DNA from: Chloroflexota bacterium
Lineage (GTDB): Bacteria > Chloroflexota > Limnocylindria > Limnocylindrales > CSP1-4
Reading direction: 5' to 3'
NCBI GenBank assembly: GCA_021786915.1
Contig: JAJYMP010000104.1
Span: 1 to 10,622, forward strand
Length of the DNA stretch: 10,622 nt
Both the position numbers and the translations under genes were made by a program. Every line of letters begins with the position of its first letter. The stretch's first letter is position 1. The notes under the pieces were generated by a model, which had not been told where the DNA came from, ran no database searches, and was given only the letters and a program-made list of their open reading frames with translations. Below are positions 1 to 10,622 of this stretch, piece by piece.

Positions 1-152
1 ACCTTGACGGGGAGTGGCCCCACGCGGACGCCGACCCCCGCCCGCGCGCTGCTGGACACCGAGATCGGGCACGAGACGAGGCACGGCTCCCCGTCCAGCG
101 TGCCCTGGAAGAGCTCGCCGCAGGTGCCCGGGACCGACGCGGTCGTGATCAC
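1..152 (-). CDS. pduX: L-threonine kinase, PduX-type GHMP kinase, N-terminal part (partial at window edge)
   Basis: A 50-codon open frame starts with GTG at 152, overlapping the cbiA stop as GTGA, and runs off the window end. The translation contains TASVPGTCGELFQGTLDG followed by a Ser-Cys-Pro-Ile segment (residues 27-30). The pattern P-G-T-C-G-E-L-x-Q-G is the N-terminal signature of PduX-like L-threonine kinases, which make L-threonine O-3-phosphate. CobD decarboxylates that product to the aminopropanol phosphate linker of B12. The position directly after cbiA in a B12 operon supports this role. The ATP-binding glycine/serine loop of GHMP kinases would lie further along, outside the window. 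Another GHMP kinase is possible, but the signature and neighbours make this assignment the best one. Confidence 0.8.
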   Translation of the reverse strand, partial: MITTASVPGTCGELFQGTLDGEPCLVSCPISVSSSARAGVGVRVGPLPVK

Positions 153-1579
153 GCCACCGGCTCCAGGGACGCGGCCCAGGCTCGGCAGGCGCCGACGAAG
201 CGCTCCGCAAGGCCCCCGCCCTGGTCGAAGTGGAGGTGCACGTACGAGGCGAGCAGGGCGCCCGAGGCGAAGCCTTCCGCGACGGGCGCGTCCGAGCAGC
301 CGGGGCGGGCGCAGCGGTAGGCCGCCGGAGTACCGGCCGGACGGTGCCACGTCGAGAAGTGGAACTCGTGGCCCCGCAGGCGATCGCCCGCGCGTGCCAG
401 CGGGCCGTCGGCCAGCGCCTCGACCTCGCGGTAGCCGAGGGTCACCCGCTCGGCCATCGCGCACCGTCCCGGGAGCATGCCCGCGAAGTCGTGGCTGCCC
501 GCCGGGCCGTCCAGCCCCCCGGTCAGCAGCATTAGGCCTCCGCACTCCGCGTAGATCGGCATGCGCGTCCTCCCGGCCCGGCGGATGGACGCGAGCATGT
601 CCGCGTTCGCGGCGAGGCGCGCCGCGTGGAGCTCTGGGTACCCCCCGCCGAGGTAGAGCCCGGCGGCGCCGTCGGGGAGGCGGTCGTCGCGGAGCGGGCT
701 GAAGGGCGTGATCTCGGCGCCCGCCCGGCGCAGGGCGTCGAGGTTGTCCGCGTAGTAGAAGGAGAACGCCTCGTCGCGCGCCACGGCGATGCGAACGCGC
801 GCCGGACCAGGCGTGCCAGCCGTGTCCTCGTACGCCATCGTGGCTGAGATCGGGGCCGGCAGGGCGGACGCCCGAGCGCCGGCGGCGATCGCGAACACCG
901 CCGAGAGGTCGACGTGACGCTCAACCGCGCTCCGCGCCCCGGTCGCCAGGTCGTGCGCCGCGTCGGGCTGCTCGTCAGCGGTGACGAGCCCGAGGTACCG
1001 CTCCGCGACGGCGAGGTCCGGCGTCCTGGGCACCATGCCGAGCACCGGGATCCCGAGGGGCGACAGGGCGTCACGCAGGAGCCTCGCGTGACGCTCGCTG
1101 CCCACGCGGTTGCCGATGACGCCGGCAATGCGGATCCCCGGCACGAGGGTGTCGAAGCCGTGGACGATGGCCGCCACGCTGCCCGCCATTCGCGCCGCGT
1201 CGACGACCAGCACGATCGGCGCCCCCAGCAGGTCCGCGACCTCGGCCGTGGTGCCGTCCAGCGGCCCGCCGCCCGCGCCGTCGAACAGGCCCATGACGCC
1301 CTCGACCACCGCGATGTCGGCGTCCGCGGTGGCTCGCAGGAAGGCGCGGACGACCGCTTCGCGGCCGGTCATCCAGGTGTCGAGGTTGCGTGATGGCCGG
1401 CCGGTCGCGACCGCGTGGTACATGGGGTCGATGTAGTCGGGCCCGACCTTGAACGCCTGGACGGTCATCCGTGCGGCGAGCGCGGCCATCAGGCCGGTCG
1501 CGATCACGCTCTTGCCGCTGCCGCTCGCCGGGGCGGCGACGATGAGCCGGGGGACCGGGCCCCAAGCCGGGCCGGTCAC
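149..1579 (-). CDS. cbiA: Cobyrinate a,c-diamide synthase CbiA
   Basis: This 476-residue ATP- and glutamine-dependent amidotransferase converts the a and c acetate side chains of cobyrinic acid to amides. The N-terminal synthetase domain has a P-loop-like nucleotide site APASGSGKSVIATGL (16-30), KVGPDYIDP (44-52), NLDTWM (65-70) and VVEGVMGLFDG (91-101). The C-terminal class I glutaminase-like domain has LYLGGGYPELHA (308-319), AECGGLM with nucleophile Cys346, LGYREVEA (381-388), GHEFHFS (403-409) and the probable active-site His448 in SYVHLHF. All key residues are present. The start is GTG at 1579, overlapping the cbiL stop (GTGA), with GAGGGGG 5 bases upstream; an earlier in-frame methionine would run 307 residues into cbiL and cbiET. 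The aerobic homologue CobB acts on hydrogenobyrinic acid; CbiA is preferred because cobalt is inserted early here. The c,a-amidated product goes on to adenosylation. Confidence 0.94.
   Translation of the reverse strand: MTGPAWGPVPRLIVAAPASGSGKSVIATGLMAALAARMTVQAFKVGPDYIDPMYHAVATGRPSRNLDTWMTGREAVVRAFLRATADADIAVVEGVMGLFDGAGGGPLDGTTAEVADLLGAPIVLVVDAARMAGSVAAIVHGFDTLVPGIRIAGVIGNRVGSERHARLLRDALSPLGIPVLGMVPRTPDLAVAERYLGLVTADEQPDAAHDLATGARSAVERHVDLSAVFAIAAGARASALPAPISATMAYEDTAGTPGPARVRIAVARDEAFSFYYADNLDALRRAGAEITPFSPLRDDRLPDGAAGLYLGGGYPELHAARLAANADMLASIRRAGRTRMPIYAECGGLMLLTGGLDGPAGSHDFAGMLPGRCAMAERVTLGYREVEALADGPLARAGDRLRGHEFHFSTWHRPAGTPAAYRCARPGCSDAPVAEGFASGALLASYVHLHFDQGGGLAERFVGACRAWAASLEPVA
153..164 (-). 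promoter_or_regulatory. Ribosome binding site of the threonine kinase gene
   Basis: GGAG at 164-161, inside the last codons of cbiA, lies 8 bases before the GTG at 152. It supports that GTG as the start of the edge-truncated downstream gene. Confidence 0.5.
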
Positions 1580-2283
1580 CGAGACCCCCTCGCGATGACC
1601 AGCGACAGGTACGGCACGGGCTCGCCGGCCCAGTCGGCGAGCGTGGTGCAGGACGCCCCGTCCTGGGTGGCTCGCTCGACGAGGACCGCCTCGCCGAGCG
1701 AGCCGATGTCGCGAAGCGCCTCGACGAGACGGGCGACGTGCCGGTGCACCTTGTAGATCACCAGGGTGTCGACCCGCCCCAGCCACGCCGGGAGGTCGTC
1801 GAGCACGTCGGCGGCGGTCGCCACCAGCAGCCGCTCGTCCTCGATCACGAGCGGCAGGACCGCCTCGGCGGCCGCGGCCGTGAGCGACGAGACGCCGGGG
1901 CACACGCGGACCGGCACGCCGGAGGGCATCTGCGCGAGGAGATGCTGGAAGCTGCTGTAGAGCAGCGGATCGCCCTCGGTCACGAACACGACGTCGTCGC
2001 CGGTGCGCAGGCGGTCGAGGACCAACCGCGCGGCTTCCCGGCGGGCGTGCAGCCGCACGTCGCGCGCGGGCGACATCGGGAAGTGGAGCGGCAGCTCGAC
2101 CGCGCCCTCCGGGATCAGCTCGGCGACGATCCCGCGCGCGAGGCTCCGGCCGCCCTCGTCCACGACGTAGGCGACGACGCCCGCGCCTGACACGATCCTC
2201 GTCGCCCGCCGCGTCACCAGCTCGGGGTCCCCCGGGCCGACGCCGACGCCGTGCAGCGTCCCCGTGCGCGGCTCGGGGGTCAT
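1576..2283 (-). CDS. cbiL: Cobalt-factor II C20-methyltransferase CbiL
   Basis: This 235-residue tetrapyrrole methylase transfers a methyl group from SAM to C20 of cobalt-factor II, the first ring methylation after cobalt insertion. It shows GVGVGPGDPELVTRRA (12-27), VVAYVVDEGGRSLAR (36-50, the region that is usually a P-x-x-x-x-G-x-S-A-R type in CbiL/CobI), VTEGDPLLYSSF (101-112), VCPGVSSLTAAAA (127-139) and VIYKVHRHVARL (175-186). The order of motifs and the FVTEGDPLLYSSF form separate it from CbiF and CbiH. The start ATG at 2283 overlaps the cbiET stop (ATGA) and has GGGAGG 6 bases upstream. Its stop overlaps the GTG of cbiA. The protein is slightly short but complete. CobI is the aerobic equivalent; context favours CbiL. 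Confidence 0.92.
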   Translation of the reverse strand: MTPEPRTGTLHGVGVGPGDPELVTRRATRIVSGAGVVAYVVDEGGRSLARGIVAELIPEGAVELPLHFPMSPARDVRLHARREAARLVLDRLRTGDDVVFVTEGDPLLYSSFQHLLAQMPSGVPVRVCPGVSSLTAAAAEAVLPLVIEDERLLVATAADVLDDLPAWLGRVDTLVIYKVHRHVARLVEALRDIGSLGEAVLVERATQDGASCTTLADWAGEPVPYLSLVIARGSR

Positions 2284-3512
2284 GCGTGGCCTCCCGGCCC
2301 CGGCACGACGCCGGCGACGATGAACACGGGATTCGCCGGGACGAGCCGCGTGCCGTCGCCGATCGGCGCACCGGCGGCGAGCTGGATCTGGACCAGCTCG
2401 GGCTCCCAGCCCGCCGACCGCAGCCAGGCATGCGCCCGCACGACGTGCTCCAGCACGGCGAACGTCGCCACGACTCGGCAGCCAGCCGAGGCGCGGGCAC
2501 CCACCGCCTCCAGAACCGGCTCGATCCGTCCGCCGGTGCCGCCGATGAACACAGCGTCCGGTGCCGGCAGGCCCGCCAGCGCCTCGGGCGCCGCGCCGTC
2601 GACGAGCTCCACGTTGGGGATGCCGAAGCGCTCGAGGTTGACCCTGATGTCGTTGAGGCGTTCCGCCTCGCGCTCCACGGCGAAGACCCGGCCGCGCCAC
2701 GCCAGCTCGGCCATCTCGATGCTCACCGAGCCGGACCCGGCACCGACGTCCCACGCCGCGTCGCCCTCGGTGATGGCCAGGCGGTCGAGCACCAGCCGCC
2801 GGACGTCCCGCTTGGTGATCAGCGCCGCGCGGTGCGCGTACGCGTCGTCCGGCCGCGACGAGGCCGCGGCGGCGGGGCGCCAAGCCGGACCCTGGTCGAG
2901 CAGCAGCACATTCAGCGGCGCGGCGGACTGCCCGGGCAGGGCCGAGAGGACAGTGTCCACCACCCGCTGTCCGGGGCCGCCGATGTCCTCGACCACGACG
3001 GCACGACCGTCGACGGCGCCCGCGGCGAGCAGCGCGGCGGCGATGCGGCCGGGCGGGCTGGCGGGATCGGTCAGGATGCCGAGGCGCCGGTGGCGGCGCG
3101 CCAGCCCGACCAGGTCCGCCAGCGGGCGGGCATGGACGCTCGCCAGGGCGGCCCCGTCCCAGGGCATCCGCGCCAGCGCGAAGGCCGCCTGCAGCGAGGT
3201 CACGGCGGGGAGGAGCTCGACCTCGTCGGCGGGCAGGAGCTCGAGGATCGTGGCGCCCACGCCGTAGAAGAGCGGGTCGCCCGACGCCAGGACGACGATC
3301 CGCTCGTCGCCCCTGGCCGTGAGCGTGCGCAGGGCGTCGCGCAGGCCGTGCGCCGGCAGCGGGACGCGCACCGCCGCGGTTGCCGGGAGGTCCCGGAGCA
3401 GGCGCTCGGCGCCCCAGATGCGGTCGGCTCGGGCCAGCCTCGCCCGCGCCTCCGGCCCGAGGCCCGGAAGGCCCTCGGGCCCGATGCCGATGACGCTCAC
3501 GACCGGCCTCAC
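2280..3512 (-). CDS. cbiET: Bifunctional cobalt-precorrin-7 C5-methyltransferase / cobalt-precorrin-6B C15-methyltransferase (decarboxylating), CbiE-CbiT fusion
   Basis: This 410-residue protein has two methyltransferase domains, as in CobL. Residues 1 to about 205 are CbiE (C5 methylation): VSVIGIGPEGL (5-15), GAERLL (34-39), VLASGDPLFYGVGATIL (74-90) and VTSLQAAFALARMPWD (104-119). Residues from about 224 to 402 are CbiT, a Rossmann-fold enzyme that methylates C15 and decarboxylates the C12 acetate: ALITKRDVRRLVLDRL (230-245), SAM motif WDVGAGSGSVSIEMA (254-268), VFAVERE (276-282), FIGGTGG (322-328) and a NPVFIV ending (394-399). The fused arrangement is common. The start is a GTG at 3512, overlapping the cbiD stop as GTGA, with GGGGGAG 5 bases upstream. 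In a cobalt-early pathway its substrate comes from a CbiJ reductase, which is not seen in this window. Confidence 0.93.
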   Translation of the reverse strand: MRPVVSVIGIGPEGLPGLGPEARARLARADRIWGAERLLRDLPATAAVRVPLPAHGLRDALRTLTARGDERIVVLASGDPLFYGVGATILELLPADEVELLPAVTSLQAAFALARMPWDGAALASVHARPLADLVGLARRHRRLGILTDPASPPGRIAAALLAAGAVDGRAVVVEDIGGPGQRVVDTVLSALPGQSAAPLNVLLLDQGPAWRPAAAASSRPDDAYAHRAALITKRDVRRLVLDRLAITEGDAAWDVGAGSGSVSIEMAELAWRGRVFAVEREAERLNDIRVNLERFGIPNVELVDGAAPEALAGLPAPDAVFIGGTGGRIEPVLEAVGARASAGCRVVATFAVLEHVVRAHAWLRSAGWEPELVQIQLAAGAPIGDGTRLVPANPVFIVAGVVPGPGGHA

Positions 3513-4606
3513 CGCGACTCCCCCGCGGGGTCGACCGGCGCCGGCGCCCCGCCCTCGCCGAGGAGCGCCCCGTCGAGCGAGAACAGCAGGACCCGGGCCG
3601 GTACGCCGGACGCCGCCGCCGCCGCCGTGGCCGCCAGCCCGGCGAGCGCGGGCTCGATCGCAAGGCCCTCGGCACGAAGCCAGCCCTGGACCTGGTGCGC
3701 GGTCCGCGCCGTCCGGATCCGGCGGCAAAGAGGTTCCGGGGCGCCCTCGCGGGCGGCAACGGCGGCGAGGTGCTCGAAGTCGATCTCGCCGTCGTTCACG
3801 TGCGTCTGGAACCGGCCCTGGGCGAGCTTGCTGAGCTTGCCGATCATGCCCCCGATGGCGACGCGCTCGATGCCCAGCGGCCGGACGTGCCCCAGCGGGA
3901 ACCCGAGCTCGTCGCCGACATCCACCACGCCGAGACTGCTCTCCGGCTCCCCGAGCTCCCGCCGGAGGTACTCGGCGCTCCGCTTGCCGGTCGCGATGCC
4001 GATCGAGCGGTGGCCGGCCAGGCGCGCGACCCGGAGCTCGTAGAAGGTGCTCGCGCGGAACGCCGGGGCGGAGTACGGCCGCACGAGGCCGTCGGTGCCC
4101 AGGATGGAGATCCCCCCGATGATGCCTAGGCGTGCGTTCATCGTCCGGGCAGCGGCCTGCTCACCGTCCGGGACGCGGATCTCGACCCGCCAGCCGTCGC
4201 CAGCGTCCGGCCCCAGGTCGCGCAGTGTCGCCTCGGCGACCCGCCGGATGAGGCGTCGCGGGCCGGGGTTGATCGCCGCCTCGCCGACCGCGCAGGGCAG
4301 GCCCGGCAGCGTCACGACACCGACGCCGTGCCCGCCCTCGATCGAGAGATCCCCGCCGCCGCGGCGGCTGACGAGGGCCTGGATCTCGAGGCCCGCGGTG
4401 ACGTCGGGGTCGTCGCTGGCCTCCTTGATGACGCCGCACAGCACGCCCTCGCCGAGGCGCTCTCGGCGGACCACTGGAAATCGGGCGCCGCGGACGGTGG
4501 GGAGATCGATGACGACGGCATCGCTCTCGTCGCCGGCCACGATCGACCGCATGCCGGCGGCCATCGCGGCAGCGGCGCAGGCGCTCGTGGCGAAGCCGCT
4601 ACGCAC
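3509..4606 (-). CDS. cbiD: Cobalt-precorrin-5B C1-methyltransferase CbiD
   Basis: This 365-residue enzyme methylates C1 of cobalt-precorrin-5B to give cobalt-precorrin-6A. CbiD is unrelated to the usual tetrapyrrole methylases and marks the anaerobic pathway. Motifs seen are RSGFATSACAAAA (2-14, usually R-T-G-F/Y-T-T-G-T-C-A-A-A), GVIKEASDDPDVT (58-70), GGHGVGVVTLPGL (91-103), GEAAINPGPR (108-117), ARLGIIGGISILGTDG (158-173), SIGIATGKRS (201-210) and IGKLSKLAQG (255-264). The N-terminal motif has Ser-Ala where Gly-Thr is common (FATSAC for FTTGTC), a mild divergence. The GTG start at 4606 leaves only one residue before the first conserved segment, but no earlier start fits. The length matches the family (about 360-380). 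It overlaps cbiC by 8 bases and cbiET by 4 (GTGA). The C-terminal 40 residues are alanine-rich and poorly conserved. Confidence 0.93.
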   Translation of the reverse strand: MRSGFATSACAAAAMAAGMRSIVAGDESDAVVIDLPTVRGARFPVVRRERLGEGVLCGVIKEASDDPDVTAGLEIQALVSRRGGGDLSIEGGHGVGVVTLPGLPCAVGEAAINPGPRRLIRRVAEATLRDLGPDAGDGWRVEIRVPDGEQAAARTMNARLGIIGGISILGTDGLVRPYSAPAFRASTFYELRVARLAGHRSIGIATGKRSAEYLRRELGEPESSLGVVDVGDELGFPLGHVRPLGIERVAIGGMIGKLSKLAQGRFQTHVNDGEIDFEHLAAVAAREGAPEPLCRRIRTARTAHQVQGWLRAEGLAIEPALAGLAATAAAAASGVPARVLLFSLDGALLGEGGAPAPVDPAGESR

Positions 4607-5219
4607 CCGTCGACTCCGTGGCGAGCCGGAGGAGCGCGTTGACGATCGCCGCCGCGACCGTGGACCCGCCCTTCCGACCGAGGCACGTGATCCACGCGAG
4701 GTCCGTGGCCGCCAGAGCGTCCTTCGACTCGGCCGCGTCGACGAAGCCCACGGGCACGCCGACCACGACCGCCGGTCGCACCCCATTGGCCGCCAGCCGC
4801 AGCACCTCGCGCAGCGCCGTCGGCGCGTTTCCAATAGCGACCACCGACCCGTCTAGGTCGGGCGCGAGGCGGCGGATCGCTGCAGAGGACCGAGTAATGC
4901 CGTCAGCACGGGCAAGAGCCGCGGTCTCGGGCTCGTGCACCCCGCAGACCACGCGGCTGCCGAGCGTGGCCAGGTGGCGCCGGCTCATGCCCGAGGCGGA
5001 CATCGTCACGTCGGTGACGACCGGGTGCCCCGCCCGGAGCGCCGCCACGGCGTCCTCGATCGCCGTCGGACTGAAGACGAGGTGCTGGGCGAAGTCGAAA
5101 TCGGCCGTCGCGTGGATGACGCGCTGCACGATCGGCAGGCGGGGCCCGCTCGGGGCGTCCGCGCCCAGCTCCCCGAGGATGATGCGGAAGCTCTCGCCCT
5201 CGATCTCGTCGGGTCTCAT
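4599..5219 (-). CDS. cbiC: Cobalt-precorrin-8 methylmutase CbiC
   Basis: This 206-residue cytosolic enzyme moves the methyl group from C11 to C12, converting cobalt-precorrin-8 to cobyrinic acid. Visible family motifs are RVIHATADFDFA (33-44) with the catalytic histidine (His36, matching His43 of CobH), TDVTMSASGMSR (69-80), IGNAPTAL (129-136), GVPVGFVDAAESK (154-166) and GRKGGSTVAAA (181-191). The length is normal for the family. The start at 5219 is chosen from the ATGA overlap with cbiH and a GAGGGGA ribosome site 7 bases upstream; an earlier in-frame methionine in cbiH would add 77 unrelated residues. The stop is TAG, unlike the TGA used by the other ten complete or 3'-containing genes here, and it lies inside the start of cbiD. 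The protein is homologous to aerobic CobH; context favours CbiC. Confidence 0.94.
   Translation of the reverse strand: MRPDEIEGESFRIILGELGADAPSGPRLPIVQRVIHATADFDFAQHLVFSPTAIEDAVAALRAGHPVVTDVTMSASGMSRRHLATLGSRVVCGVHEPETAALARADGITRSSAAIRRLAPDLDGSVVAIGNAPTALREVLRLAANGVRPAVVVGVPVGFVDAAESKDALAATDLAWITCLGRKGGSTVAAAIVNALLRLATESTGA
4604..4617 (-). promoter_or_regulatory. Ribosome binding site and GTG start of cbiD within the cbiC end
   Basis: GGAG at 4617-4614 lies 7 bases before a GTG at 4606-4604. No other ATG or GTG occurs in the few codons before the first conserved CbiD residues, so this site decides the cbiD start. The resulting overlap GTGCGTAG holds the cbiC stop. Confidence 0.6.
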
Positions 5220-5980
5220 GCCGCGCTCCCCTCGAGGTCGTACTTGCGCTCGTAGCCGCGCGCGGTCACGAGTCGCCCGTCGAGCACGCGGGTGTGCGGC
5301 CCGCCGACCACCACGATCGCGTCCATGCCGACCTCCACGGACGCCAACTCGCCGAGGGTCACCAGCTGGACCTGCTGCCCGTCGCGGTACGCGGCGCGCA
5401 CGACGCCGCACGGCGTCTCGGGATCGCGGTGGCGGAGGATGGCCTCGCACGCCAGCCGGTACGGCTCGGTCCGCGTCCGGCTGCGCGGGTTGTAGAGGCA
5501 GAGCACGAACCCGGCCCTGGCGGCGAGCTCGACGCGCTCGAGGATGGCGCCCAGCGGCGTGAGCTGGTCGCTCAGGCTCACGGAGGCGAAGTCGCTCATC
5601 AGCGGGGCGCCCAGCAGGGCGGCCGCCGCGGTGAGCGCCGTGATCCCCGGCAGGACGGTGACCGGCACCGCCGGGACCGCGTCGGCCGCCAGCACCTCGA
5701 ACAGCAGGCCCGCCATGCCGTACACGCCCGCGTCGCCCCCCGAGACCAGGGCCACCCGGTGGCCCTCGCGGGCCAGCGCGATCGCCCGCCGCGCCCGCGC
5801 CACCTCGCCGCGCATGCCGCTGCGCTCGCGCTCGACGCCCGGCGCAACGTCGCCGAGCTGCGCGATGTAGGTCTTATAGCCGAGGATCACATCGGCGCCC
5901 TCGAGCGCCCGCCGGGCCGCCGGCGCGAGCCAGTCGGGGCTGCCCGGGCCGATCCCAACGACGTCGATGGCCCCACTCAT
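5216..5980 (-). CDS. cbiH: Cobalt-factor III C17-methyltransferase (ring contraction) CbiH
   Basis: This 254-residue SAM-dependent methyltransferase adds the C17 methyl group and contracts the macrocycle, giving cobalt-precorrin-4. The family motifs are in order: VVGIGPGSPDWLAP (7-20), ADVILGYKTYI (29-39), VSGGDAGVYGMAGL (79-92), VLPGITALTAAAALLGAPL (109-127), DFASVSLSDQLTP (130-142) and the CbiH/CobJ-specific LYNPRSRTR (162-170). The end VTARGYERKY (238-247) is also typical. It is a single-domain form; in some organisms this enzyme is fused to CbiG, whereas here CbiG is fused to CbiF instead. The start at 5980 is set by the strong ribosome site and the ATGA overlap with the preceding stop. 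Its own stop overlaps the cbiC ATG by 4 bases. The aerobic homologue CobJ is similar, but the surrounding CbiD, CbiG and CbiK make the anaerobic assignment preferable. Confidence 0.93.
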   Translation of the reverse strand: MSGAIDVVGIGPGSPDWLAPAARRALEGADVILGYKTYIAQLGDVAPGVERERSGMRGEVARARRAIALAREGHRVALVSGGDAGVYGMAGLLFEVLAADAVPAVPVTVLPGITALTAAAALLGAPLMSDFASVSLSDQLTPLGAILERVELAARAGFVLCLYNPRSRTRTEPYRLACEAILRHRDPETPCGVVRAAYRDGQQVQLVTLGELASVEVGMDAIVVVGGPHTRVLDGRLVTARGYERKYDLEGSAA

Positions 5981-7815
5981 GCCAACCCACCTCCAGCTGC
6001 AGCGACGGCGACGGTGACGTTTCCTGACTTGCGCTTGGGGACGAGCAGAGAGCCCGATCCCGCTGCGATCTGCGCCGCCGGCTCGGCCACGCCGTCCACG
6101 CCAAGCGCCCGCCTGGCGTGGAGTGACGGCTGCGAAAGCTCGCCCAGCGACCGGATCTGCTCCGCCGTCACGAACGTGACCGGCCAGCCGTGGTCCCTGG
6201 CCGCAGCGAGCAGGCCGGCCTCGTCCGCCTTGGCGTCGATCGAGGCAAGGCGAACGACGGCCGCGGGCGCGAGGCCCGCCAGGCGCAGCGTCTCGCAGAC
6301 CGCCGCGCCGATCTCCTCCGCGGCGGTCCCGCGGTTGCACCCCACGCCGACGACCAGGCGCCGCGGGTGGTACACGGCGGCCTGCTCGAAGGCGTCCCAG
6401 GCTTCGGGGTCGGGCTCGCGGAGGGTCACCAGGACCAGCGACCGGGCGCCGCTGGTCGCGGCCTGCCGCCACGAGTCGTGGCGCTCCCACACCGTGCCGT
6501 CGAGCGCGGCGGGGATCGCGCAGCCGTCATCGGCGACGACTGCCACCGGCCCGCCGTCGACGGCCGCCGCCATCACGGCGTCGAGCCGGCTTCGCGGGTG
6601 CGCGGCCCAGTTGGCCCCGCGCGCGACGAGGTCGAGCGGCGCCACGCCCGCCACGTCGCTCGCCGTCGTGACCACCGCCTGGCCGCCCGTGATGGCGGCG
6701 ACGGCCTCCGCCAGCGCGTTCGCGCCGCCCTCGTGCCCGCCCACCAGGCTGACGGCGAAGCGCCCGGCGGCGTCGACCACCACGACGCCCGGGTCGACGT
6801 GCTTGCTCGTGAGCAGCGGGCCGAGCTCCCGGACGACGATGCCGGCGGCCATGACGCAGACCAGCGACTCCGAGGCGGCGAACGCCTCGCGGAGGACATC
6901 GCGGACCGACGCCCGGAATGGCCGCACGCCGACCGCGCCCTCATCGCCGGGCGCGGCGAGGCGAGCGGGCAGGTGCAGCGTGGCGTCCGGGAGTCCGGCC
7001 GCGATCGTGCGCCCCAGCTCGGCCGCGGGCGCGGTCAGCGCGACCACGGCGGCTCCGGCGCGGGTCCGGGATGCGTCCATGAACGTCCCGTACAGGTGCG
7101 ACCGCGGCGCTGGCCCGCCGGCGAACCCCGGGCTCACGATCACGAGGCCCTGGTGCGTGAGCTCCGCTTCCTCGACGCGCCTCGCGACGGTCTCGAGCGT
7201 CGCCCGGACCACTCGCTGGTCGGGCCAGCTCGCGCGGTAGACGACCGCGACAGGCGTCGCTGGTTCGTACCCGGCCGCCTCGAGCTCCTCGACGATCTCG
7301 CGGATGAGCCCCGTGCTCAGGAACAGCGCCAGGCTCGTCCGGTGGGCCGCGAGGTCGCGCAGCCGCTCCCGCTCGGGCACGGGCGTCCGGCCGCCGACCC
7401 GGGTCAGGATCAGCGTCTGGGTCAGCTCCGGCAGCGTGAACTCGAGGCCGAGCGCAGCCGCCGCCGCGAACACGGAGCTGACGCCGGGCACGATCTCGAA
7501 GGCCACGCCCGCCGCGCGGAGGGCCGCCGCCTGCTCGTGGAGCGCGCCGTACACGGACGGGTCCCCCGTGTGGAGCCGGGCGACCGAGCGTCCCGCCCTG
7601 GCCGCCCCGACCATCATGTCCAGCTGCTCGTCGAGCGGCATGCGCGCCGTGTCGCGGACGACGGCGTCCGGCCGGACCCCATCGAGGACGGCCGGGTTGA
7701 CCAGCGAGCCCGCGTAGAGCACCACGTCGGCGGACGCCAAGACGCGCCGGGCCTTGAGCGTGACCAGCTCCGGGTCGCCCGGCCCCGCGCCGATGAACCA
7801 CACCTTGCCCGTCAT
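5977..7815 (-). CDS. cbiF-cbiG: Fusion protein: cobalt-precorrin-4 C11-methyltransferase CbiF + cobalt-precorrin-5A hydrolase CbiG
   Basis: This 612-residue protein joins two consecutive steps. Residues 1 to about 245 are CbiF, a SAM-dependent tetrapyrrole methylase: WFIGAGPGDPELVTL (6-20), LYAGSLVNP (33-41), LHTGDPSVYGA (81-91), PGVSSVFAAAA (110-120) and LTQTLILTR (131-139), the last typical of CbiF/CobM. From about 255 the protein is CbiG, which opens the delta-lactone of cobalt-precorrin-5A and releases a two-carbon fragment. The CbiG N-terminal region has VMAAGIVVREL (321-331), SLVGGHEGGANALA (356-369) and TTASDV (383-388). Its C-terminal domain has VVGVGCNRGT (488-497), ASIDAKADE (524-532) and the ending LLVPKRKSGNVTVAVA. 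The ATG at 7815 has GGGGA 7 bases upstream and overlaps the stop of the preceding gene. An internal ATG at 7080 (residue 246) sits at the domain border and could start CbiG alone, but no stop separates the halves. CbiG is a hallmark of the anaerobic route. Confidence 0.93.
   Translation of the reverse strand: MTGKVWFIGAGPGDPELVTLKARRVLASADVVLYAGSLVNPAVLDGVRPDAVVRDTARMPLDEQLDMMVGAARAGRSVARLHTGDPSVYGALHEQAAALRAAGVAFEIVPGVSSVFAAAAALGLEFTLPELTQTLILTRVGGRTPVPERERLRDLAAHRTSLALFLSTGLIREIVEELEAAGYEPATPVAVVYRASWPDQRVVRATLETVARRVEEAELTHQGLVIVSPGFAGGPAPRSHLYGTFMDASRTRAGAAVVALTAPAAELGRTIAAGLPDATLHLPARLAAPGDEGAVGVRPFRASVRDVLREAFAASESLVCVMAAGIVVRELGPLLTSKHVDPGVVVVDAAGRFAVSLVGGHEGGANALAEAVAAITGGQAVVTTASDVAGVAPLDLVARGANWAAHPRSRLDAVMAAAVDGGPVAVVADDGCAIPAALDGTVWERHDSWRQAATSGARSLVLVTLREPDPEAWDAFEQAAVYHPRRLVVGVGCNRGTAAEEIGAAVCETLRLAGLAPAAVVRLASIDAKADEAGLLAAARDHGWPVTFVTAEQIRSLGELSQPSLHARRALGVDGVAEPAAQIAAGSGSLLVPKRKSGNVTVAVAAAGGGLA
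5981..5996 (-). promoter_or_regulatory. Strong ribosome binding site of cbiH inside the cbiG 3' end
   Basis: GGAGGT at 5994-5989 is a near-perfect Shine-Dalgarno sequence 8 bases before the ATG at 5980. It lies within the last codons of the preceding gene. It fixes the cbiH start and is the best ribosome site I see in the window. Confidence 0.7.
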
Positions 7816-9353
7816 GCCGGCGTCCCCGCGGCGGCCGCGAGGGCGTGGTCGACGTACACCCGGCGGATATCGGCCAGCTCGCCGAGCCCGGTCAGGCGAG
7901 GCGTGACCTCGTAGCCGCGCCGCTCGAGCGTCCGCCGCCAGCTCCCCTCCTGGGGCCCCGCCATATCCACCAGCGCGTGCTCGCCGGCCACCAGCATGAA
8001 CGGCACGAGCGTCACGCGACGCACCCCCAGGCCATCGAGGCGCTCGAACGCCTCCTCCGGGGTCGGCGTGCCCTCGACGGTGGCCATGAGCACGCGCTCG
8101 TACCCGGCGGCGTGGAGGGTCGCGTCGAAGGCCGCGTACGCGCCATTCGCCGGGTGGCTCGAGCCGTGGCCCATCAGGAGCACCGCCTCGTCGGGCCCGC
8201 GGTCGCCCACCGAGCGCCCCACGGCCGCCGCGACCCGGAGGTGGTCGGCGGGCGAGGCGAGCAGGGGCATGCCGATCGCGAGGCGCTCGAACTCGCCGGC
8301 GTACGGGGCGACCTCGTCGAGGAGCCGGTGGTACTCGCTGCCGCGCAGGAGGTGGAGCGGCTGGACGACCACCTCGCCCACGCCCTCGTCCGCCAGACGT
8401 CGGGCCGCCTCCGCCACGGTCCCAGTCGCGATGCCGTCCCGCCGCGCCAGGCGCTCGATGACCATCGTGGACGTGAACGCGCGCCGGACCGGCCAGCCGC
8501 GGAACGCCGCCCCGAGGTCGCGCTCCACCGCGCCGATCGTGCGATCGAGCGTCTCGCGGTGCGTGGTGCCGAAGCTGACCGCGACGACCGCGGCGCGCGC
8601 CGTCCCGCTCGGCTCGGGATTGGCGGCCTTGACCCGGCGCACGGGCCGCCGGTCGGTGGCGCGAAGCTCGGCCAGGACGGGGCTCGTCGGACCGGTCCGC
8701 CGGATCGCGCCGCGGTCCATCCACACGGTCCGGGCGGACCAGCGCCGCGCGAGCGCGAGGTCGTGCGTCGCGAGGACCACCGTGCACCCTTCGGCCGTGA
8801 GCCCGTCGAAGATGTCGAGCACGTTCGCCCGCATCCACGGGTCGAGGCTGTTGGTCAGCTCGTCCGCGAACAGGAACCTCGGCCGCATCGCCAGCACGCC
8901 CGCCAGCGCCGCCCGCGCCTGCTCGCCGCCGCTCAGCGCGTGCGTGGGGCGGTCGAGGAGGCCCGCCAAACCGCAGCGCTCGGCCGCGTCGGCCACCCGG
9001 CGCCGCACCTCGCCCCAGTCGAGGCCGAGGTTGACCGGTCCGAGGCTCAGATCCTGGGCGACGCTCGCGCTGAACAACTGGTCGCGCGGGTCTTGGAAGA
9101 CCACGCCTACCTGGCTGCGGAGGCGGAGCAGGCCAGCGCGGCTGTAGTCCACCGGACGCCCGTCGAGCAGGACCGTCCCCGCGGCAGGGCGCAGGATGCC
9201 GTTGGCGAGCAGCATGAGCGTCGACTTGCCGCTGCCGTTGGCGCCCACGAGCGCGACGGCCTCCCCGGGTCCGAGGTCGAGGGACGCGCCCGCGACCGCG
9301 AGCGTCGAACCGCCTGCGTAGCCGTACTCGACTGCGTCGAATTTGAGGCTCAT
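7812..9353 (-). CDS. cbiO-cbiK: Fusion protein: cobalt importer ATPase CbiO + sirohydrochlorin cobaltochelatase CbiK
   Basis: One uninterrupted 513-residue frame encodes two enzymes. Residues 1 to about 225 are an ABC ATPase of the CbiO type: Walker A GANGSGKST (37-45), Q-loop FQDPRDQLFS (86-95), signature LSGGE (140-144), Walker B with catalytic Asp164-Glu165, and switch His197. About 30 basic, proline-containing residues follow as a linker. Residues from about 253 to 513 are a CbiK-class chelatase, which inserts Co2+ into sirohydrochlorin. They show VVAVSFGTTHRETL, AFTSTMVIERL, LHLLRGSEYHRLL, LMGHGSSHPANGAYAAF and PFMLVAGEHALVDMAG. His396 and His459 correspond to the two metal-binding histidines known in Salmonella CbiK, and Glu340 is a likely third ligand. 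The ATPase half is shorter than a usual CbiO (about 270 residues), as if the chelatase replaced its tail. The start ATG at 9353 overlaps the cbiQ stop and has GAGGG 7 bases upstream. An in-frame GTG at residue 238 (8642) could in principle start a separate CbiK, but has no clear ribosome site. Both domains are recognised with high confidence; direct cobalt hand-over is inference. Confidence 0.9.
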   Translation of the reverse strand: MSLKFDAVEYGYAGGSTLAVAGASLDLGPGEAVALVGANGSGKSTLMLLANGILRPAAGTVLLDGRPVDYSRAGLLRLRSQVGVVFQDPRDQLFSASVAQDLSLGPVNLGLDWGEVRRRVADAAERCGLAGLLDRPTHALSGGEQARAALAGVLAMRPRFLFADELTNSLDPWMRANVLDIFDGLTAEGCTVVLATHDLALARRWSARTVWMDRGAIRRTGPTSPVLAELRATDRRPVRRVKAANPEPSGTARAAVVAVSFGTTHRETLDRTIGAVERDLGAAFRGWPVRRAFTSTMVIERLARRDGIATGTVAEAARRLADEGVGEVVVQPLHLLRGSEYHRLLDEVAPYAGEFERLAIGMPLLASPADHLRVAAAVGRSVGDRGPDEAVLLMGHGSSHPANGAYAAFDATLHAAGYERVLMATVEGTPTPEEAFERLDGLGVRRVTLVPFMLVAGEHALVDMAGPQEGSWRRTLERRGYEVTPRLTGLGELADIRRVYVDHALAAAAGTPA

Positions 9354-10084
9354 CGAGGCGCCCTCGCCATCAGCGCGAGCGCCCAGCGCGGGTGGTCGTA
9401 CGAGCCGGGAAGCACGTTGAGCGCGCCGCCTCCACCGCGGGCGGAGAGGGCGTCCTCGAGGCGTCGGCTGCGCCGGTAGGCCTCCACGAACAGCGCGGCC
9501 CCGATGCGCCCGGAGCTCGAGACGGTCGTGCGCCAGCCCGAGAAGCCGAGTCGCGCCTGGGTCGCGGTCACCATGTGGTCGAGCGTTTCGAGCAGCACGA
9601 AGATGAAGCGGTACATGAGCGTCACGAGGTCGACCAGGACGTCGGACACACGCAGCGCCCGGAGCAGGTCGACGATCGCGACCACGGGCGTGGTGAGGGC
9701 GAGGAAGTTCATCGCCGCGGTGCACGCCAGCGCCCGCGCCAGCACGTTCGCGGCAAGGCCCAGCGACGCGTCGCTGACCTCCAGCCACAACGGCCCGACG
9801 GCGACGCCCCCCGCGACGGGCGCTGTCCCGACGCTGACCGCCAGGCCGACCACGCCCGCGGTCAGGAAGGCGGCCTCGCCCACGGCCAGGCGCAGGACGA
9901 CCGCCGCGGGCAGCCTTGCCCAGCCGACCGACATCGCCGCCACGACGGCGAGCACCGCGACGCTCACCTCGAGTCGTCCGGCCAGGAGCGCCGTGAGCAC
10001 GGCGACCAGGCTGGGCGCGACCTTGTAGGCGGGGTGCAGGCGGGCGAGCCGATTGCCGTAGGCGAAGCGCTCGATCTGGCGCAT
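9350..10084 (-). CDS. cbiQ: Cobalt ECF transporter T-component CbiQ
   Basis: This 244-residue protein is the membrane coupling subunit that links CbiM to the ATPase. It opens with the family-like MRQIERFAYGNRLARLHP, which places the start at the ATG at 10084; an upstream in-frame methionine lies inside cbiN and would add 41 non-homologous residues. Hydrophobic segments lie at roughly 22-36, 38-56, 62-88 and 112-140. A conserved RF[IV]F-type stretch (YRFIFVLLETL) is at about 158-168. Near the C-terminus, residues 202-217 (AYRRSRRLEDALSARG) form the charged Ala-Arg-Gly helix by which T-components bind the ATPase. Its stop overlaps the cbiO start by 4 bases (ATGA). The sequence before its own ATG is G-rich (10096-10090) but only a loose Shine-Dalgarno match, so coupling to cbiN probably matters. 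Confidence 0.93.
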   Translation of the reverse strand: MRQIERFAYGNRLARLHPAYKVAPSLVAVLTALLAGRLEVSVAVLAVVAAMSVGWARLPAAVVLRLAVGEAAFLTAGVVGLAVSVGTAPVAGGVAVGPLWLEVSDASLGLAANVLARALACTAAMNFLALTTPVVAIVDLLRALRVSDVLVDLVTLMYRFIFVLLETLDHMVTATQARLGFSGWRTTVSSSGRIGAALFVEAYRRSRRLEDALSARGGGGALNVLPGSYDHPRWALALMARAPR

Positions 10085-10365
10085 CACGACCCGCCCGACC
10101 GCCGCCGACCGCGGCGAAACCCGAGGACGTAGCCAACCACCGCAGCGCCGGCCGCCGCCTGGAGCGTGAACAGCGCGTTCTCCACGTCGACGCTCGCCGG
10201 CTTCCACAGCGGCTGGAACCAGGGTTGGTAGCCGGGCTGGATCTGCGTGACCGCGGCCTTGGCCTGGTCGTCGGTGCCGTGGACCGCGCCTGCCCCCACG
10301 AGGGCCAGGGGCACGACGACCAGGGCCAGGGCCAGGACAAGCAGGGCGGCGGAGGGGATCTTCAT
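10084..10365 (-). CDS. cbiN: Cobalt ECF transporter accessory subunit CbiN
   Basis: This 93-residue membrane protein matches the CbiN family in length and layout: a first membrane helix at about residues 5-27, an extracytoplasmic loop, and a second helix at about 64-83 followed by a basic cytoplasmic tail (RRGRRR). The loop carries the family pattern of a short acidic stretch followed by IQPGYQPWFQPLWKP (about 42-56), then FTLQAAAGAAVVGY at the start of the second helix. CbiN is the small partner that helps CbiM load cobalt in the CbiMNQO importer. The ATG has a Shine-Dalgarno sequence 8 bases upstream. The stop TGA shares a base with the ATG of cbiQ (ATGA), suggesting coupled translation. 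Nothing in it looks damaged. Confidence 0.93.
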   Translation of the reverse strand: MKIPSAALLVLALALVVVPLALVGAGAVHGTDDQAKAAVTQIQPGYQPWFQPLWKPASVDVENALFTLQAAAGAAVVGYVLGFRRGRRRSGGS

Positions 10366-10379
10366 CGTCAGTGCCTCAG
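10366..10379 (-). promoter_or_regulatory. Ribosome binding site of cbiN, overlapping the cbiM stop codon
   Basis: The bases GAGG at 10377-10374 overlap the cbiM stop TGA and lie 8 bases before the cbiN ATG. This spacing supports the ATG at 10365 as the start, and ties cbiN translation to ribosomes finishing cbiM. Confidence 0.6.
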
Positions 10380-10622
10380 GCGCCGAGGGCGCGCAGCTCG
10401 GCGCCGGCGTTGGTGCGCAGCGCCCGGAAGAGCACCACCGTCACGAGCCCTTCCGCCACGGCGAGCGGGATCTGGGTCACCGCGAAGATGGCCAGGAACT
10501 TCAGGAAGGAGGCCACGATCCCGCCGGCAGGGTCCGGGTACGCGAGGGCGAGCTGGATCGAGGTCACCAGATACGTCGCGAGGTCGGCGAGCGCGGCTGC
10601 CAGGAACACCACGGCCCCCTCC
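10376..10622 (-). CDS. cbiM: Cobalt ECF transporter S-component CbiM, C-terminal part (partial at window edge)
   Basis: Only the last 81 residues are inside the window; the frame stays open through position 10621, so the start lies beyond the edge. An in-frame GTG at 10612 is not the real start, because the three codons before it (EGA) continue the protein. Two hydrophobic segments are visible: one with the CbiM-like stretch [16 protein letters not shown], and one ([20 protein letters not shown]) leading into the usual C-terminal EGLVTVVLF. CbiM is the substrate-binding membrane subunit that carries cobalt through the cytoplasmic membrane. Its metal-binding N-terminus (starting Met-His in the family) is outside the window, so specificity cannot be checked here, although the B12 genes downstream argue for cobalt over nickel. 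The stop TGA (10378-10376) is followed 10 bases later by cbiN, the only real intergenic gap in the window. Confidence 0.9.

What the first reader, a model, noticed from the sequence alone, without database searches (positions are those of the whole stretch)
7812..9353. Cobalt importer ATPase fused to the cobalt chelatase (CbiO-CbiK)
A single 513-residue frame contains a complete ABC ATPase with all motifs and a complete CbiK chelatase with both metal-binding histidines (His396, His459), joined by a roughly 30-residue basic linker. CbiO sits on the cytosolic face of the CbiM/CbiQ membrane complex, normally as two copies. The fusion would therefore place two chelatase domains beside the cobalt exit. 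The inference is that imported Co2+ is passed directly to sirohydrochlorin, limiting free cobalt and competition from nickel or iron. CbiO and CbiK are usually separate proteins; I do not know this fusion as a described architecture.
Basis: partly seen in the sequence, partly recalled or inferred. Interest (0 to 1): 0.72.

Follow-up and report, generated by a model that had tools for sequence, protein, structure and literature searches.

The report
Cobalt importer motor fused to chelatase
A bacterial vitamin B12 gene cluster encodes one protein that joins the motor of a cobalt importer to the enzyme that puts cobalt into the B12 precursor, and other bacteria made the same join independently, which hints that import and insertion of cobalt may benefit from being side by side.

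Summary
Residues 1-229 are a CbiO ATPase, 254-507 a complete CbiK chelatase with the catalytic histidines, and about 23 basic residues join them. It sits in a cobalamin operon between cbiMNQ and cbiF-cbiG. It is not an error: four other protein clusters 65-79% identical share the architecture, and codon periodicity runs through the linker. A second group (35-37% identical; 12 clusters, plus one uninterrupted frame in an assembled genome) carries the same fusion. Trees of CbiO and, in the careful tree, of CbiK reject a common origin, so the fusion arose at least twice; a larger quick CbiK tree did not. CbiO was also joined to the smaller chelatase CbiX. Unfused relatives keep cbiO and cbiK next to or near each other. 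The model shows two known folds on a disordered tether. Proximity of chelatase and importer follows if the complex assembles; metal hand-off is inferred, untested, and weakened by CbiK's published slow, pool-based metalation. Ten searches of an open-access library found no description. A real, recurrent new architecture of known families; mechanism unproven.

The parts
7812..9353 (-). cbiO-cbiK fusion gene, 513 codons plus stop
   Evidence: one open frame; Pfam and NCBIfam; homologues with the same architecture
8667..9353 (-). CbiO ATPase module, residues 1-229
   Evidence: ABC_tran 22-168; NCBIfam cbiO over its cut-off; Foldseek CbiO chain of 5x3x, TMt 0.74
8595..8663 (-). linker, residues 231-253, basic and disordered in the model
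   Evidence: pLDDT under 50 at 232-251; 7 K/R against 2 D/E; GC3 0.92 over codons 229-252
7833..8594 (-). CbiK class II chelatase domain, residues 254-507
   Evidence: PF06180 E 7.3e-69; Foldseek 1qgo TMt 0.94, rmsd 1.5
8166..8168 (-). His396, equivalent of His145 of 1QGO
   Evidence: alignment; invariant in A1
7977..7979 (-). His459, equivalent of His207 of 1QGO
   Evidence: alignment; invariant in A1
8334..8336 (-). Glu340, aligned with Glu at position 89 of 1QGO
   Evidence: invariant in A1
10376..10621 (-). cbiM, 3' part only, cut by the window end
   Evidence: PF01891 over cut-off
10084..10365 (-). cbiN
   Evidence: PF02553; NF002780 over cut-off
9350..10084 (-). cbiQ
   Evidence: TIGR02454 over cut-off
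5977..7815 (-). cbiF-cbiG fused gene
   Evidence: TIGR01465 over cut-off; CbiG_N, CbiG_mid, CbiG_C
5216..5980 (-). cbiH
   Evidence: TIGR01466 over cut-off
4599..5219 (-). cbiC
   Evidence: PF02570 over cut-off
3509..4606 (-). cbiD
   Evidence: TIGR00312 over cut-off
2280..3512 (-). cbiE-cbiT fused gene
   Evidence: TIGR02467 and TIGR02469 over cut-off
1576..2283 (-). cbiL
   Evidence: TIGR01467 over cut-off
149..1579 (-). cbiA/cobB, cobyrinic acid a,c-diamide synthase
   Evidence: NF002204 513.9 bits, cut-off 254

Best explanation
A genuine bifunctional protein: the ATPase of a group I cobalt ECF transporter (CbiMNQO) carrying the sirohydrochlorin cobaltochelatase CbiK as a C-terminal domain on a flexible tether of about 23 residues. 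It probably arose by joining two nearby genes of a B12 operon. In the assembled transporter the two CbiO copies would hold two chelatase domains on the cytosolic side within tether reach. The likeliest benefit is proximity: cobalt leaving the importer meets a high local concentration of sirohydrochlorin-loaded chelatase before nickel or iron does. Shown here: the frame, the domains, the catalytic residues, the operon, homologues, at least two origins, unfused relatives with both genes close together. Inferred: transporter assembly with the chelatase attached, cobalt as substrate, proximity. Speculative: kinetic hand-off and gain in metal selectivity.
For: Full-length homologues P0003-P0006, 65-79% identical. 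Second group P0007-P0018 and an uninterrupted 563-codon open frame in genome G1003 within a cobalamin cluster. One clade of both groups rejected for CbiO (p-AU 8.6e-12) and for CbiK in the careful tree (p-AU 1.3e-6). CbiO joined to CbiX in P0045 and to CbiX-CbiD in P0062. Unfused genes close together in G181 (one adenosyltransferase gene between) and adjacent in G978 and G990. In G1003 the fused chelatase is the only CbiK- or CbiX-profile match found. Catalytic residues kept. A review states that class II chelatases insert Fe, Ni and Co and that specificity is likely imposed within the cell (PMC7689651, passages).
Against: No measurement of transport, chelation or metal transfer. Salmonella CbiK works without a chaperone from the exchangeable pool, Km 0.79 nM, vmax 0.60 per min (PMC10206600, passages), so hand-off is not needed and turnover is slow; the review ties specificity to binding affinities (PMC7689651), not to import. 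Overall pTM is 0.51 and the linker is disordered: no docked interface. P0129, 74% identical, is predicted as CbiK alone on a 2,517-base contig. Many relatives are unfused: no listed row is an uninterrupted CbiO-CbiK fusion in 400 phylum-level, 391 class-level and 28 family-level genomes, one in 247 order-level genomes, and none listed is CbiO-CbiX in 400. The 96-row quick CbiK tree did not reject one origin (p-AU 0.326), and the tree tool warned of odd letter make-up in several fused rows.
Confidence: 0.58

Rival explanations
1. The fusion only fixes equal amounts and co-expression of two operon neighbours; the chelatase works as it would if free, drawing cobalt from the cytosolic pool. Neutral stop loss between adjacent in-frame genes is enough.
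For: In G978 cbiO and cbiK share a frame with one TAA between and the cbiK ATG 12 bases after it. The window also has cbiF-cbiG and cbiE-cbiT fusions, so fusion is common in this operon. CbiK needs no chaperone (PMC10206600, passages).
Against: At least two independent CbiO-CbiK fusions plus CbiO-CbiX, and group 1 kept the join while diverging to 65% identity; recurrence hints at selection, but adjacency alone could also give it.
Confidence: 0.33
2. The chelatase domain acts mainly as a cytosolic sensor that tunes the importer, for example by slowing ATP hydrolysis when sirohydrochlorin is absent or cobalt is bound.
For: Regulatory C-terminal domains on importer ATPases exist (MetN, recalled, no call). 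CbiK follows the end of the ATPase module.
Against: Catalytic residues are kept, and in G1003 no other CbiK or CbiX match was found, so the domain probably still does catalysis there; the model shows no docking.
Confidence: 0.05
3. The protein is cut in the linker, or CbiK is also made from an internal start, so that free CbiO and CbiK do the work.
For: A GTG at codon 238 is the only ATG/GTG/TTG codon between codons 215 and 275; the linker is disordered; P0129 is predicted as CbiK alone.
Against: Nothing direct. P0129 may be a contig or gene-calling effect; its DNA could not be read, and internal starts in relatives were not examined.
Confidence: 0.08
4. Assembly or sequencing artefact that removed a stop or a frame change between two genes.
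For: No whole genome is held for the window; one of the two other frames of the gene's strand has no stops at all, so stops alone would not reveal a frame change.
Against: Four other clusters keep the join at 65-79% identity and codon-phase GC continues through the linker.
Confidence: 0.01

Closest known systems
CbiO of group I cobalt ECF transporters (CbiMNQO; PDB 5X3X, 3GFO)
   Same: NCBIfam cbiO over cut-off, ATPase motifs present, cbiM-cbiN-cbiQ directly upstream
   Different: The ATPase module ends near residue 229 and continues into a chelatase; the solved CbiO chains are 275-292 residues long in all
CbiK sirohydrochlorin cobaltochelatase (Salmonella, PDB 1QGO/2XWP)
   Same: Whole domain, both catalytic histidines and the glutamate aligned; TMt 0.94
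   Different: Tethered to an importer ATPase; under the NCBIfam equivalog cut-off (221.4 of 400 bits)
Periplasmic CbiK of Desulfovibrio vulgaris (2XVX) and FetB of Porphyromonas gingivalis (9B86)
   Same: CbiK fold; FetB is deposited as heme-binding
   Different: Separate proteins; 2XVX is titled periplasmic. In genomes G659 and G741 a CbiK-like gene lies beside an ATPase whose best model is a heme transporter ATPase, below its cut-off, unlike the cobalt ECF ATPase here
Other chelatase fusions: chelatase/precorrin-8X methylmutase (NF004449 model) and PF13241-CbiK (P0126, P0127)
   Same: A class II chelatase joined to another B12 or siroheme protein (P0126 scanned; that PF13241 marks precorrin-2 dehydrogenase is recalled)
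   Different: Joined to pathway enzymes, not to a metal importer

Membership tests
CbiO (cobalt ECF ATPase) | Curated cbiO model reached | tested here: met
   TIGR01166 213.0 bits, cut-off 211.8
CbiO (cobalt ECF ATPase) | Walker A, Q-loop, LSGG, Walker B with glutamate, H-loop | tested here: met
   invariant columns of A1 (12 sequences), save Ser41 of Walker A, which is Gly in P0004; motif definitions recalled
CbiO (cobalt ECF ATPase) | cbiM, cbiN and cbiQ in the same operon | tested here: met
   cbiM cut by the window end
CbiO (cobalt ECF ATPase) | Forms CbiMNQO and drives cobalt uptake | not testable with these tools
   needs biochemistry
CbiK (class II cobaltochelatase) | Domain reaching the Pfam cut-off over its length | tested here: met
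   PF06180 profile 2-260 of 262, 232.4 bits, cut-off 26.2
CbiK (class II cobaltochelatase) | Catalytic histidines in the C-terminal lobe (His145, His207) | tested here: met
   His396, His459
CbiK (class II cobaltochelatase) | NCBIfam equivalog cut-off | tested here: not met
   NF047852 221.4 of 400 bits; the two unfused CbiK proteins scanned (G978, G741) scored 310.1 and 313.0, also under 400
CbiK (class II cobaltochelatase) | Cobalt as the metal inserted in vivo | not testable with these tools
   most class II chelatases are said to insert Co, Ni and Fe (PMC7689651, passages)

The most novel reading that the evidence does not exclude
Several lineages independently built a membrane-bound 'import and insert' machine for cobalt in which the CbiO dimer is the scaffold of the chelatase. 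In the CbiO-CbiX form (P0045, P0062) each chain carries a single-lobe CbiX with both histidine motifs; since small CbiX acts as a homodimer with its active site at the interface (PMC7689651, passages), the CbiO pair would itself complete a chelatase site on each importer, perhaps opening or closing it with the ATP cycle.
Probability: 0.2. Interest if true: 0.8.

Novelty: new variant of a known kind. Interest (0 to 1): 0.52.

Why it matters
Class II chelatases mostly insert cobalt, nickel or iron alike (PMC7689651, passages), so how each gets the right metal is a live question; the published account for CbiK is acquisition from a buffered cytosolic pool (PMC10206600, passages). A chelatase that is part of the importer makes direct supply testable with one construct and its split control. 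Recurrent fusion in separate lineages is an evolutionary hint that import and insertion belong together, and the fusion could serve as a part for engineering B12 production.

Tried and rejected
Artefact: rejected on four other clusters and on codon phase. Single origin of both groups: rejected by AU test for CbiO (5 rows of group 1 and 4 of the 12 clusters of group 2) and for CbiK in the careful 42-row tree (6 and 4 rows, P0129 counted in group 1). The 96-row quick tree gave p 0.326; its free search had missed a tree better by 48 log units in another test of the same call, so I rely on the careful tree. Its 42 rows were my selection from the 96.

Adjacency in G659, G741 and G746 first looked like split CbiO-CbiK. 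In the two I scanned (G659, G741) the ATPase best matches a heme transporter model, below its cut-off, so I do not count them; G746 was not scanned. One search listed five further such places at 32-35% identity with stops inside (G971, G861, G883, G831, G872); I did not scan their ATPases and count none.

RNA families: no Rfam match at gathering score in the window. Naming the organism: no genome is held; Chloroflexota is inferred from the CbiO tree alone. A close fused relative in the species genomes: the exact-word scan gave 48 loci, of which 46 match the query no further than residue 260 and two reach residues 288 and 324; none covers the CbiK half. A comparative genomics paper on Ni, Co and B12 (PMC2667541, passages) has no 'fused' or 'fusion' in its main text.
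Full report
What is there. The frame runs on the minus strand from 9353 to 7812: 513 codons, ATG to TGA. Pfam places ABC_tran at residues 22-168 and CbiK at 255-507. NCBIfam cbiO is just over its cut-off; the CbiK equivalog model is not, and two unfused CbiK proteins that I scanned also fall short of that cut-off. His396 and His459 align with His145 and His207 of Salmonella CbiK, and Glu340 with the Glu at position 89. Third-position GC is 0.93, 0.92 and 0.96 in the CbiO half, the linker and the CbiK half, so one frame looks coding throughout. The only ATG, GTG or TTG between codons 215 and 275 is a GTG at 238.

Surroundings. The minus strand reads cbiM (3' part), cbiN, cbiQ, cbiO-cbiK, cbiF-cbiG, cbiH, cbiC, cbiD, cbiE-cbiT, cbiL, cbiA/cobB. 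The five junctions printed (N/Q, Q/OK, OK/FG, FG/H, H/C) all have overlapping stop and start codons. This reads as a cobalt-early (cbi type) corrin pathway with its importer; among the genes scanned the only chelatase is the fused one. No Rfam family reached its cut-off in the window.

Relatives. A search that admits only proteins of 282-898 residues scored 7,995 candidates; 1,790 passed 1e-10 and the best 120 were listed. Of those 120, 17 carry both ABC_tran and CbiK: the window's own, four at 65-79% identity and 513-530 aa (group 1: P0003-P0006), and twelve at 35-37% and 554-567 aa (group 2: P0007-P0018). A search scored on the CbiK half alone listed 11 proteins, of which three besides the window's own are group 1 fusions and two (P0126, P0127) join PF13241 to CbiK; P0006 and group 2 were not listed there, since only the candidates sharing most words were scored. 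Two further proteins join CbiO to the small chelatase CbiX: P0045 (420 aa) and P0062 (779 aa, CbiO-CbiX-CbiD); each CbiX carries both histidine motifs, equated by eye. No listed row of 400 phylum-level genomes (33 matched at 1e-70) extends P0045's match into its CbiX half without a stop.

Origins. In a careful tree of 41 CbiO rows group 1 is a clade (100/99) whose sister is the unfused CbiO of an Anaerolineales genome, L001 (100/98); group 2 lies with CbiO rows from the Clostridia search (100/98 with G654). Forcing both groups together costs 164 log units (p-AU 8.6e-12). No CbiK match was found in L001's genome (0 of 5 genomes searched). In a careful tree of 42 CbiK rows, chosen by me from 96, forcing them together costs 55 units (p-AU 1.3e-6); group 2 sits with unfused CbiK of G699 and P0143 (100/99), and group 1 with P0130, P0132, P0135, P0136 and the CbiK of G181 (99/98). 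The 96-row quick tree did not reject a single origin (p-AU 0.326). The tool warned of odd letter make-up in rows of group 2 (CbiO) and group 1 (CbiK), and of long branches meeting among archaeal CbiO rows. I conclude at least two independent CbiO-CbiK fusions, with CbiO-CbiX as a further kind.

How the join may have arisen. Genome G181, from the phylum-level set around L001's genome, has cbiM-N-Q-O, a cobA/btuR-type gene, then cbiK, cbiF-G, cbiH, cbiC, cbiD, cbiE-T and cobB: the window's order with cbiO and cbiK separate, one gene between them, and no cbiL seen by BLAST there. Of 15 genomes of that set whose cbiO locus I read with 1.5-kb flanks (the top loci, not all that matched), 6 have a class II chelatase gene downstream of cbiO within the flank: CbiX in five, CbiK in one (BLAST against three chelatase reference domains, two of the CbiX matches only 24-27% identical). 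In 247 genomes of the order of G654, 20 matched at 1e-80. Of these, G1003 holds an uninterrupted 563-codon open frame, 64% identical to P0008, in a cobalamin cluster; G978 has cbiO and cbiK in one frame with a single TAA between and the cbiK ATG 12 bases after it; G990 has 60 bases between the cbiO stop and the cbiK ATG. G1003's fused chelatase is its only CbiK match, and its only CbiX-profile match is the same place; the genome is in many contigs and may be incomplete, and it has other cbiO-like ATPases, one of them over the cbiO cut-off.

How rare. No listed row was an uninterrupted CbiO-CbiK fusion in 400 genomes of the phylum of G001 (259 matched at 1e-30; list cut; 3 candidates scored per genome), in 391 of the class of G002 (61 matched at 1e-60) or in 28 of the family of G309 (2 matched at 1e-70). 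In the genus of G1003 only G1003 itself of 6 genomes matched at 1e-60. A scan of the collection of 84,980 species genomes by exact words from the window protein gave 48 loci, none covering the CbiK half. One close CbiK, P0129, is predicted without the CbiO half; its DNA could not be read.

Structure. AlphaFold2 on 12 aligned fusions gives mean pLDDT 78.1, pTM 0.51, and a stretch under 50 at 232-251. Foldseek matches the halves to 1QGO (TMt 0.94, rmsd 1.5) and to a CbiO chain of CbiMQO 5X3X (TMt 0.74). So the model supports two known folds on a tether; it does not support a fixed docking. A linker of about 23 residues could span at most some 80 angstrom (3.5 angstrom per residue; inference).

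Mechanism. CbiMQO forms a 1:1:2 complex (PMC7689651, passages). If the fusion assembles likewise, two chelatases hang on the cytosolic side of each importer. Most class II chelatases are said to insert Fe, Ni and Co, with specificity imposed within the cell, by the review's account through binding affinity (same passages). Closeness to a cobalt importer would be another way to bias supply. Against a strict hand-off: Salmonella CbiK with sirohydrochlorin has Km 0.79 nM and a vmax of 0.60 per min and is reported to take cobalt from exchangeable cytosolic sites without a chaperone (PMC10206600, passages). I therefore rank proximity first and equal dosage without metabolic gain second.

What is in print. 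Ten searches of the held open-access library returned no paper describing a CbiO-CbiK or CbiO-CbiX protein in the listings and passages I saw. Of eight papers I saw passages only (PMC7689651, PMC8620254, PMC2667541, PMC3403914, PMC8123684, PMC8305020, PMC13227078, PMC10206600); the others I saw as listings. Preprints and most subscription journals are not covered, so this is not proof of absence.

Noticed in passing
P0045 and P0062 (proteins): CbiO fused to single-lobe CbiX, once also to CbiD; small CbiX works as a homodimer, so the CbiO pair could complete the chelatase site.
   Followed up: partly
L075 8784-9635 with 7866-8780; L076 10674-11456 with 9771-10670: CbiK-like genes in frame behind ATPases whose best model is a heme transporter ATPase, below its cut-off, one stop codon apart; perhaps FetB-like heme or metal binding proteins.
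   Followed up: partly
P0122 (327 aa): CbiK with an N-terminal stretch that looks like a lipoprotein signal (by eye), so probably an exported CbiK.
   Followed up: no
window 3-149, minus strand: Start of a further gene after cobB; 'GTCGE' near its start recalls GHMP kinases such as PduX (recalled); no Pfam or NCBIfam match for the 49-residue piece.
   Followed up: partly
   Followed up: no
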